A stretch of DNA of 64,000 nucleotides from Paramecium sonneborni (lineage: Eukaryota; Ciliophora; Oligohymenophorea; Peniculida; Parameciidae), in contig CAJJDN010000074.1 of NCBI GenBank assembly GCA_905182985.1, positions 300,104-364,103 of the forward strand, given 5' to 3'. The notes below the pieces were generated by a model that had not been told where the DNA came from, did no database searches, and was given only the letters and a program-made list of their open reading frames with translations. This document shows, piece by piece, positions 31,446-50,106 of this stretch. The first letter of the stretch is position 1; every line of letters begins with the position of its first letter. A program made the translations under genes and the position numbers.

Positions 31446-31847
31446 AGCATTTTAGGATAGAGATAATTTATTTTTGATTATAGATTTATTGATTTGTGGT
31501 GATTAAGATTTCATTTAAGAAAGATGAGAAGATTTAGTGAAGCAACTAGTAAATAAGAATAATTATTAAGATAAAGTTTTTTTATTGCTTTTATATTATT
31601 GGCTTTAACTTATTAAAATTAAAATGGGATTATTTAGAGAGATTTAAAACCACAAAATTTAGTTTAAGAGGAAAATGAATACATGAGATTAATAGATTTG
31701 TGTATAGCCAGGATAAATAAAGGAAATAAGATGTGTAGATAATACTTCAGGAACACTTGGATATATGGGAATACCAGAAGTTATGTGTAGAATGGATCAT
31801 AGTTGTGGCTAAGCGTTAGCAAATTAATTAACGCCTTGTCAGTGATA
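31183..31847 (+). pseudogene. Broken STK32/YANK-like kinase, contig-1 version (N-terminus and core)
   Basis: Recognisable pieces in order: RRQFKFLNIIGKGRFGRI, SLKEMSKKK, HHPFFVNMW, FQDRDNLFLIIDLL, LLALTYQN, RDLKPQNLV, then LIDLCIAR and YMGIPEVMCR (across two frames). These match STK32/YANK-type AGC kinases. It is not functional as written: TGA follows GRI where the family has Trp, there are frameshifts around 31395 and later, and the catalytic HRD appears as QRD. The copy stops at the N (31848). The last 40 bases (31808-31847) no longer match the kinase and look compositionally different. Confidence 0.82.
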
Positions 31848-31848
31848 N
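31848..31848. other. Assembly gap (single N)
   Basis: An ambiguous base joining two contigs whose sequences overlap by 863 bp; the join is not a true adjacency. Confidence 0.95.
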
Positions 31849-46232: not shown

Positions 46233-48233
46233 TCAAAGTGTTAACATTTTCTCTCCTTTCTTAAAAATTCTTTCTTAAGATTATTAACTTTAAAGACCTA
46301 AAATCTCATTCATTTCCTCTTCTGATAATTTTGTTTTATTATAAATAGATGTATATTTTTATTTTTATTTTGCTTATTTAATGATTGGTTTAGTAGAAAT
46401 TGATTTTTTTTTCTTGAAATCTTAATTTCTTTTTGTTTCCAATATCTATTATCTTTTTCTTGTTCTAATTGCATATGTCTAAAGATTTGGAGGTTCATCA
46501 AGAACTTATATTATTTCATTATTTTTGTTTACACCTGATTCAATCTATTAAATTTATTAAATTTGTGTTTATATTTTTTTTTTGTTAAATTTTACTTTAT
46601 TAATTTTAGACATATTAAAATTGATTTATTAAATTGAATTTTTTGATTAATCTTAAACAATAATAGATTTTTGATTTAATTTTAGATCTTATTTATTATT
46701 TAATTATTATTCATTTGCTTCTTTTTCTTCTTCTTAAATGTAAGTTTTTTACTTGAGTACATTTTCTATATTGGATGTAGAACTTTCTTTAATTGATTAA
46801 GGACTAGTAGGTTTTTTATTTTTTGATTATTTAATTTTAGCAATACATTTATTATTTTATAATTCTGATTAGGAACAATAATGATAGGAACAATTAATTT
46901 TTTATTAAGAGGATAGAATAAGTTATAAAATGTTAATATTATATTTACATTAGACTTAATAGTATTTAATTTTGTCACATTTTAAACAAAAGACTTTTTA
47001 TTAATATTTATAACAACATAAAAATAGTTCTTCTTTACATTCATTACAAAAGCAATAATTTCTAATTGAATAATTTATATCAATAGAGTATATTTTCTTT
47101 TTATCCTAAAATTCTTAAATTGCTTCTAATTCTTATGTAAGAAATTCTTAAAGATAAATCTTTAATTGTTCATTAGGGTGATGAATAAAAATATCTAAAA
47201 ATAGATTTTTAAAAGGAAGTTGTGATTTAATTTAATATTAAATGTTAATTTTTTATCTCTTTATGATTTATTAATATGAATATGAATTCATAGCTAAAAA
47301 ACTCCAACCAGTAGTAATAGTAGTAGATAATGATTCAATTTAATAAAAAGATCCTGCTCCTAAAATAATAAGATCTCCTGGTTTTTAAATAAATCTCTTA
47401 TAAGGTATATCATATTTCTTTAAAAGTTCTCTTTTTAAATAATGATTACCTTCTTATAGAATAAATTAATTTTCATTTTAAAATAACTTTTCTATATTTT
47501 CAGAATCTATAACAATCCATAAACAATTTCCAGGTCCATGATTTAAACTAAGTAAATTAACTGCTCCAGATTCTTACTTTAATCCTTTCCAACTTCCTGG
47601 AGAAAGAATATTAAGTTAAAGTTAATTAATATTTTAAATTTTGGTTCTTAAATAACTTAATCCATCTTCTTTTAGAAAAGATTAAGGTAAATTTTCATAT
47701 AATTTAAATGACTCTTCTTCCCAATTTTCAATTGATAAATCAAATAAACATAATAATTTATTTGGATTATATTACTTATTTTTATAAAAGAAATCGATTG
47801 GATTCGATATATATTCAATATATTTGGATAAATTCATTGAAAAACTTGATTTTTCTGTATTCTCTTAATTTATTTTTAGTTACTAAGTTAATATTACTGA
47901 TTCCTAACCATGATTATGTTTTATATTTTATAATCTAAAGTATCCTCTATTTAATTGGTCCAACACATCTTATGGGAATTCCCATAAAAATACAGATTGA
48001 TCTACCCATTCTGATATAGGTAAATGAAATCTCTCAAGAGGGTCATTAATTTTTTAAGGTTAAGTGTTATTATACAAATCTAAATAAGAATCTAAAACCT
48101 CTTTAAATTTAGGTTGATTTTCTTATTTGTCATATTATTACAATAAGTTCTCAATATTAATTTACTCCAAAAGTTCTTTTTCTTAAGAAGTTACTTAATA
48201 ATGAAGATTAACAAATTCCGCAAAAAGGTTCAT
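46233..48233 (-). CDS. JmjC-domain protein, KDM6/UTX-like, with altered iron ligands
   Basis: Intron-free, 666 aa. After an N-terminal helical region (DPLERFHLPISEW) the JmjC fold shows SLNHGPGNCLWIV, YKRFIQKPGDLI and TGWSFLAMN, aligning best with the KDM6 group (NINIGPGDCEWF, YRFIQRPGDLVW). A Cys-rich C-terminal module follows (CFCNECKEELFLCC..CLKC), as in KDM6 proteins, then a basic Gln-rich tail. The HxE..H iron ligands appear as Lys (47577-47579), Glu (47571-47573) and Tyr (47343-47345), so demethylase activity is doubtful. The first 38 codons are duplicated at 49085-49199. Confidence 0.8.
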
Positions 48234-49083
48234 GTTATATTTTATTTTGTTTTGTTAATCAATTTTTATGATCATATTAAAATAAAAAACAAAAAAAAAA
48301 GAACTCTTAAATTTAGGCAAATCCTATCAAATAATCAGTCTTTTCCAATACTTCATTTCTCTATTTGTCTATTATTGAAATGAAACAATTCAATATAATT
48401 AGATAAACTAATTCACTTAATGTATAATATTAGATAATATTTACTTTCATTATCATCTTAATAAATTACATTATATACTTTAAGATTTAGTCAGGAAATC
48501 ATTATAACAGATTTAAACAATATCAAAATAATTTTTTAAATTGTTCTTACAACTAAAACAGAACAAAAAAAGAAACACACATTTTCTTCTCATATCTTTA
48601 CCTGTTTAAAATGAAATTTATTCTTTCATAGAACATAATATTGGTTTTATAAATTTTCTTTATAGGTGGAATCTCTTGCACTCATTTTTAAATAAACAAG
48701 TTAGGTTCTTTTCATATTGGGGTAATCAATTATTTTTTATATTTGCAAAAACTAATGTTTGCCCTTAATAATTTTAATTTTATTTTTATTTTTCAATAAA
48801 TTAAGAGAATTGTTTCATAATTGTGTTATCCATTAAATTAAGTAACAAGTTTCAAATCTCATGAATAATCCATATATATTTGTAACTTAATGGATGGTAT
48901 TGGTAATACTTTTATAATTTAAATTAAATATTATCAGAATTGAATTGAATTATTTTTCTAATAAAAATTTATTTATATTTGGAATTTTTTCTATCAAATG
49001 TTAATATGTTAAAGCACTTTAATTAGAATTCTAATTAGAAAATAATTTGAACTGGAAATTAATTATCTTATGAAAACTTGTAT
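48119..49083. repeat. Direct repeat copy A, 965 bp (insertion-free version)
   Basis: Matches 49085-50106 at offset 966 except for a 57-bp insertion in the second copy. Holds the 5' end of the JmjC gene and the non-coding region upstream of it. It ends at an N, so this is the end of one contig. Confidence 0.93.
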
Positions 49084-49084
49084 N
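49084..49084. other. Assembly gap (single N)
   Basis: Joins two contigs that overlap by about 1 kb and probably failed to merge because of the 57-bp difference. Confidence 0.95.
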
Positions 49085-50106
49085 TTTCTTATTTGTCATA
49101 TTATTACAATAAGTTCTCAATATTAATTTACTCCAAAAGTTCTTTTTCTTAAGAAGTTACTTAATAATGAAGATTAACAAATTCCGCAAAAAGGTTCATG
49201 TTATATTTTATTTTGTTTTGTTAATCAATTTTTATGATCATATTAAAATAAAAAACAAAAAAAAAAGAACTCTTAAATTTAGGCAAATCCTATCAAATAA
49301 TCAGTCTTTTCCAATACTTCATTTCTCTATTTGTCTATTATTGAAATGAAACAATTCAATATAATTAGATAAACTAATTCACTTAATGTATAATATTAGA
49401 TAATATTTACTTTCATTATCATCTTAATAAATTACATTATATACTTTAAGATTTAGTCAGGAAATCATTATAACAGATTTAAACAATATCAAAATAATTT
49501 TTTAAATTGTTCTTACAACTAAAACAGAACAAAAAAAGAAACACACATTTTCTTCTCATATCTTTACCTGTTTAAAATGAAATTTATTCTTTCATAGAAC
49601 ATAATATTGGTTTTATAAATTTTCTTTATAGGTGGAATCTCTTGCACTCATTTTTAAATAAACAAGTTAGGTTCTTTTCATATTGGGGTAATCAATTATT
49701 TTTTATATTTGCAAAAACTAATGTTTGCCCTTAATAATTTTAATTTTATTTTTATTTTTCAATAAATTAAGAGAATTGTTTCATAATTGTGTTATCCATT
49801 AAATTAAGTAACAAGTTTCAAATCTCATGAATAATCCATATATATTTGTAACTTAATGGATGGTATTGGTAATACTTTTATAATTTAAATTAAATATTAT
49901 CAGAATTGAATTGAATTATTTTTCTAATAAAAATTTATTTATATTTGGAATTTTTTCTATCAAATGTTAATATACACTATGTAAAATATTATTAAAGTTT
50001 TATATTTTAATTTTATATTAATGACAATATGTTAAAGCACTTTAATTAGAATTCTAATTAGAAAATAATTTGAACTGGAAATTAATTATCTTATGAAAAC
50101 TTGTAT
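49085..50106. repeat. Direct repeat copy B, 1022 bp (insertion-containing version)
   Basis: Second copy of 48119-49083. It includes an artefactual fragment of the JmjC gene start (49085-49199, minus strand) and continues naturally into the CK1 gene. The true locus is inferred to be JmjC gene (minus) and CK1 gene (plus), divergent across about 0.95 kb. Confidence 0.93.
49973..50029. mobile_element. Candidate retained internal eliminated sequence (IES), 57 bp
   Basis: Present only in copy B. Copy A reads GTTAATATGTTAAAG; copy B reads GTTAATA, then 57 extra bases, then TGTTAAAG. The insertion is flanked by a TA at each side with one TA left in copy A, exactly as after Paramecium IES excision. 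The ends read inward TATACACT and TATTGTCA, both partial matches to the TAYAGYNR consensus. 57 bp fits one of the ~10-bp-spaced length classes of Paramecium IESs. Non-coding and AT-rich. Confidence 0.75.

What the first reader, a model, noticed from the sequence alone, without database searches (positions are those of the whole stretch)
49973..50029. 57-bp TA-bounded insertion that behaves like a retained IES
Two near-identical copies of one locus (48119-49083 and 49085-50106) differ only by this insertion. The empty site has one TA and the filled site has a TA on each side. Terminal octamers (TATACACT, TATTGTCA) partly match the Paramecium IES consensus, and 57 bp fits the known periodic size classes. 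The sequence therefore captures both retained and excised states of one germline element in the JmjC/CK1 intergenic region.
Basis: partly seen in the sequence, partly recalled or inferred. Interest (0 to 1): 0.85.

Follow-up and report, generated by a model that had tools for sequence, protein, structure and literature searches.

The report
Partly excised DNA element, doubly assembled
A 57-letter piece of ciliate DNA is present in one assembled version of a locus and cleanly absent in the other, most likely because this single-celled organism cuts it out of only some copies of its working genome; the apparent duplication around it is an assembly artefact, and the phenomenon is already known.

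Summary
In detail: 48119-49083 and 49085-50106 are identical except for one 57-bp insertion that can be read as TA-bounded (49971-50027 plus TA; the finder's coordinates are an equivalent placement). But they are not two genomic copies. A single N at 49084 lies exactly between them, and in the 273.9 kb examined 9 of 9 single-N junctions are flanked by an exact overlap of 863-1290 bp, against 0 of 113 control splits. These are two contig ends of one locus, one with the insertion and one without. The genome is Paramecium sonneborni. The likeliest reading is an IES incompletely excised in the polyploid macronucleus. Sequence support is modest: 470 of 63306 57-bp deletions placed in the window (0.74%) are TA-bounded with ends at least as good. 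A 5-bp microhomology would let a repair deletion look the same, and no germline DNA or reads could be checked. Such TA-indels and weak intergenic IESs are documented (PMC3464196, PMC8354472, PMC4132734). Probably an ordinary retained IES inside an assembly artefact; low interest.

The parts
49971..50027 (.). 57-bp insertion in its TA-bounded placement (one TA included); candidate retained IES
   Evidence: Exact comparison of the two contig ends; TA-bounded placement and end scores; the only match in the own genome is itself (that search skips very common words)
50028..50029 (.). second flanking TA
49084..49084 (.). single N: scaffold join between two overlapping contig ends
48119..49083 (.). 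end of the left contig: the locus without the insertion (empty site)
   Evidence: 965 bp identical to the right contig apart from the insertion
49085..50106 (.). start of the right contig: the same locus with the insertion
46236..48233 (-). JmjC-domain gene (666 aa, ciliate code); its 5' end falls inside the overlap, so its first 36 codons appear again at 49092-49199
   Evidence: tblastn, Pfam PF02373
50167..50706 (+). first part of a protein kinase gene (casein-kinase-1-like by appearance); its start codon is about 138 bp downstream of the insertion
   Evidence: translation, Pfam PF00069 8.7e-26; the CK1 label was not tested by a call

Best explanation
One macronuclear locus was assembled into two contig ends that overlap by about 1 kb and were joined with a single N instead of being merged (shown by the pattern of such joins). 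The two ends were built from molecules in two states: with and without a 57-bp TA-bounded segment in the intergenic region between the start of a JmjC gene and the start of a protein kinase gene (that both states are real molecules is inferred). The segment is most likely an IES that the domesticated PiggyMac transposase machinery removes precisely, leaving one TA, from only some of the many macronuclear copies (inferred).
For: Overlap artefact: 9 of 9 single-N junctions in 273.9 kb have a 100%-identical overlap starting at base 1 or 2 after the N, and in 7 of 9 ending at the last base before it; 0 of 113 control splits do. Overlap extents up to the left contig end are 965-1290 bp (figures taken). 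The ohnologous region on C88 is single-copy, and the 'second copy' of the JmjC gene is only 36 codons. Two states of one allele: no substitution in 965 bp. IES-like: TA-bounded, 57 bp against published peaks at 55-56 (PMC3464196, passages), combined chance 0.74%, more A+T-rich than the rest of the intergenic stretch (10.5% against 18.2% GC). Prior: P. sonneborni has about 60,000 IESs (an estimate; PMC8354472, passages), and on average 5.4% of intergenic IESs are retained at more than 10% across the species studied (section 10 read).
Against: The left end fits the consensus poorly (2 of 5). The 5-bp AATAT repeat at the ends is also what a microhomology-mediated deletion would show. No germline sequence, no read counts and no orthologous DNA were available; the ohnologue is too diverged at the site to say which state is ancestral. 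The form with the insertion has long flanks on both sides while the empty form ends 76 bp past the site, so the assembly does not show that the retained form is the minor one. 7 of the 9 overlaps show no such difference, so the join itself does not need an IES to explain it.
Confidence: 0.78

Rival explanations
1. Cryptic excision: the 57 bp is normal macronucleus-destined DNA that the IES machinery removes by mistake from some copies (a 'low-frequency TA-indel').
For: This class is documented (PMC3464196 section 12; PMC4132734 passages). The filled form has the longer contig context. One of the two ends (TATTG) fits the TATNR preference reported for such errors.
Against: Cryptic events are reported as rare and scattered over the polyploid genome, so one frequent enough to be assembled is unlikely. 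57 bp is not in their prominent 26-30 nt peak.
Confidence: 0.1
2. Ordinary 57-bp deletion or insertion that segregates in the sequenced culture (or arose somatically) through the 5-bp AATAT microhomology.
For: The ends share AATAT. 6.6% of 57-bp deletions placed in the window would look TA-bounded by chance.
Against: There is no other difference in 965 bp. Only 1.2-1.9% of random 57-bp deletions have 5 bp or more of microhomology, though a microhomology mechanism would select for them. Aurelia species become homozygous at autogamy (recalled), so segregating alleles are not expected.
Confidence: 0.07
3. A real tandem duplication in which only one copy carries the element.
For: Two copies lie side by side in the scaffold.
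Against: The boundary is exactly the single N, and 9 of 9 sampled single-N joins show the same kind of overlap. The ohnologue is single-copy. The second JmjC copy is a 36-codon stub.
Confidence: 0.02
4. Pure misassembly: one of the two states does not exist in any molecule.
For: Both states sit at contig ends, where assembly is weakest.
Against: A clean TA-bounded 57-bp difference with perfect flanks is not a usual assembly error (judgement, no call).
Confidence: 0.03

Closest known systems
Residual TA-indels / weak (partly retained) IESs of Paramecium
   Same: TA-bounded segment present in one and absent from the other version of a macronuclear locus; intergenic; length near the 55-56 bp size peak
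   Different: Nothing shown to differ; germline presence and read counts were not tested here
Low-frequency TA-indels (cryptic or alternative-boundary excision)
   Same: TA-bounded presence/absence in macronuclear DNA, weak end consensus
   Different: Reported as rare, scattered events with a prominent 26-30 nt peak; here the state was assembled and is 57 bp
Unmerged overlapping contig ends at scaffold joins
   Same: Single N between directly repeated, otherwise identical sequence; same at 9 of 9 sampled joins
   Different: Here the two ends also differ by an indel; 1 other of the 9 joins (window 31848) is discordant

Membership tests
Paramecium IES | Bounded by TA on both sides, one TA left after excision | tested here: met
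   the placement is ambiguous because of the 5-bp AATAT repeat, one placement is TA-bounded
Paramecium IES | Weak end consensus TAYAGYNR at both ends | tested here: inconclusive
   4 of 5 at one end, 2 of 5 at the other; the sum is reached by 122 of 1065 (11.5%) TA..TA 57-bp intervals in the window
Paramecium IES | Length at a ~10-bp periodic peak | tested here: met
   57 bp against peaks centred at about 55-56 bp in P. tetraurelia (PMC3464196); weak evidence, about 4 in 10 lengths lie as near to a peak (estimate, no call)
Paramecium IES | Present in micronuclear (germline) DNA, precisely absent from macronuclear DNA | not testable with these tools
   No micronuclear reads or germline assembly were found among the tools; only both states in one assembly
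Paramecium IES | Excision depends on PiggyMac | not testable with these tools
   needs silencing data
Overlapping contig ends (assembly artefact) | Direct repeat abuts the gap character on both sides and recurs at other gaps of the same type | tested here: met
   9 of 9 single-N joins have an overlap that abuts the N on the right (base 1 or 2), 7 of 9 exactly on the left in the ungapped alignment, this one too once the 57-bp gap is allowed; 0 of 113 controls

The most novel reading that the evidence does not exclude
The 57-bp segment is a conditionally retained IES in the divergent promoter region of a chromatin-type (JmjC) gene and a kinase gene, so that its retention level tunes expression of one of them.
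Probability: 0.02. Interest if true: 0.6.

Novelty: new member of a known kind. Interest (0 to 1): 0.15.

Why it matters
Taken alone it is one more probable weak IES in a species with tens of thousands. The practical point is that unmerged overlapping contig ends in this assembly create false duplications (9 in 273.9 kb sampled), including a false partial gene copy here, and 2 of these 9 overlaps hold two different states of one locus. Anyone who counts tandem duplicates or retained IESs in this assembly should screen single-N joins first.

Tried and rejected
Tandem duplication was rejected. I tried to place the insertion on the ohnologue on C88 to decide which state is ancestral: the intergenic DNA is too diverged at the site, so this led nowhere. 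I looked for other copies of the element (a mobile IES family): only itself was found (that search skips common words). For a printed statement that a single n marks a possible overlap in SSPACE output I made one paper search (listing) and looked for passages in two papers of that list: none found; that meaning is recalled. Whether the scaffolder or the gap closer made the overlaps was not resolved.

The count of junctions used every N in the window and in L006 to L026. Of the 12 N runs, 9 are single Ns. The 3 longer runs were kept out of the 9 of 9; 2 of these 3 also show an overlap and 1 (L025:787) does not, with only 786 bases of left flank at hand. The sample is not random: 5 of the 9 lie in the 94 kb around the window on C74, 4 in the other 179.9 kb. 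Loci L001-L005 repeat parts of other stretches and were left out. In the control, 113 of 150 drawn split points were used; those with an N within 3 kb were dropped.

Full report
What is there. The window holds two stretches, 48119-49083 and 49085-50106, that are identical in 965 bp apart from one 57-bp block in the second. The block can be slid over a 5-bp repeat (AATAT). In one placement it is bounded by TA on both sides (49971-50027, then TA at 50028-50029), and the empty site has one TA. The finder's coordinates are an equivalent placement.

The two copies are one locus. Base 49084 is a single N and lies exactly between the two stretches. I fetched 21 further stretches of the same assembly and listed every N. 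In 273.9 kb there are 9 single Ns, 5 of them in the 94 kb around the window and 4 in the other 179.9 kb. At 9 of 9, the sequence after the N repeats the sequence before it at 100% identity over 863-1290 bp, starting at the first or second base after the N. In 7 of 9 the ungapped match also ends at the last base before the N; the exceptions are the two discordant ones, 49084 and 31848. None of 113 split points away from Ns shows a direct repeat of 60 bp or more at over 95% identity. The overlap extents up to the left contig end are similar (965-1290 bp). Two of the three longer N runs show overlaps too; the third does not. The ohnologous region on contig C88 has one copy, and the apparent second JmjC gene is only its first 36 codons. 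The duplication is therefore best read as an assembly artefact: unmerged contig ends.

Which genome. A database protein named Paramecium sonneborni is 100% identical over 658 residues to the JmjC protein encoded by C88 of this assembly, so the genome is taken as P. sonneborni. The contig lengths given with the database proteins (442,535 and 488,023) exceed those of C88 (440,616) and C74 (486,193) by 1.8-1.9 kb, which I did not explain. PMC8354472 (passages) describes the making of new macronuclear assemblies of aurelia species, P. sonneborni among the four with initial assemblies described there: Newbler contigs, SSPACE scaffolding, GapCloser; the passage seen does not list species assembly by assembly. 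That SSPACE writes a single n where contigs may overlap is recalled, not seen in a call.

What the insertion is. Since the two ends are the same locus and the same allele (no substitution), the 57-bp difference most likely reflects two kinds of molecule in the polyploid macronucleus. In Paramecium the standing cause is incomplete excision of an IES. P. sonneborni has about 60,000 IESs by estimate, and on average 5.4% of intergenic IESs are retained at more than 10%, against 0.7% of genic ones (section 10 of PMC8354472). The site is intergenic, between the starts of a JmjC gene and a divergently oriented protein kinase gene. The length, 57 bp, is close to the 55-56 bp peak (PMC3464196 passages).

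How strong the sequence evidence is. Of 63306 placements of a 57-bp deletion in the window, 4169 (6.6%) are TA-bounded and 470 (0.74%) also match the end consensus as well as this one. The ends themselves are mediocre: 4 of 5 and 2 of 5 informative positions. Random 57-bp deletions show 5 bp or more of microhomology in 1.2-1.9%, but a repair mechanism that uses microhomology would favour just these, so that route stays open. Arnaiz et al. state that TA-indels cannot be called IESs without further experimental support (PMC3464196 section 12). The assembly does not tell which state is more frequent, and the ohnologue is too diverged at this place to tell which state is older.

A second discordant join. 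At 31848 the overlap is exact for 863 bp. Then the left contig end continues with 402 bp that are absent from the right contig. This stretch looks kinase-like by eye (no family search of it ran); it belongs to a large repeated gene family (40 scored matches in the genome). In the ohnologue on C88 the two parts are in line, and about 442 bp are missing from the right version. The divergence follows a TA, but the other boundary is not seen. This may be a cryptic excision, or an assembly collapse.

Conclusion. But the duplication is an artefact, germline status is untested, and partly retained IESs are a well-described, ordinary phenomenon.

Noticed in passing
window 31446-31848 and 32712: A second single-N join whose overlapping ends disagree: the left end carries 402 bp (kinase-like by eye) that the right version lacks (about 442 bp missing relative to the ohnologue), with the divergence right after a TA.
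   Followed up: partly
L007:6161, L007:8102, L008:2947, L011:106, L017:5495, L021:3738, L023:8289: The seven other single Ns sampled are also flanked by an exact overlap of about 1.0-1.3 kb, so the assembly holds false duplications (9 in 273.9 kb sampled, window included).
   Followed up: yes
L015:7516-9351 and L017:1561-2179: Longer N runs can also have overlapping flanks (576 and 687 bp), so their gap length is probably wrong.
   Followed up: no
window 49092-49199: First 36 codons of the JmjC gene repeated by the overlap; a gene caller could report a false partial paralogue.
   Followed up: yes
C74 and C88 of the assembly: Contigs that carry the same proteins in the protein database are 1.8-1.9 kb longer than the contigs held here.
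   Followed up: no
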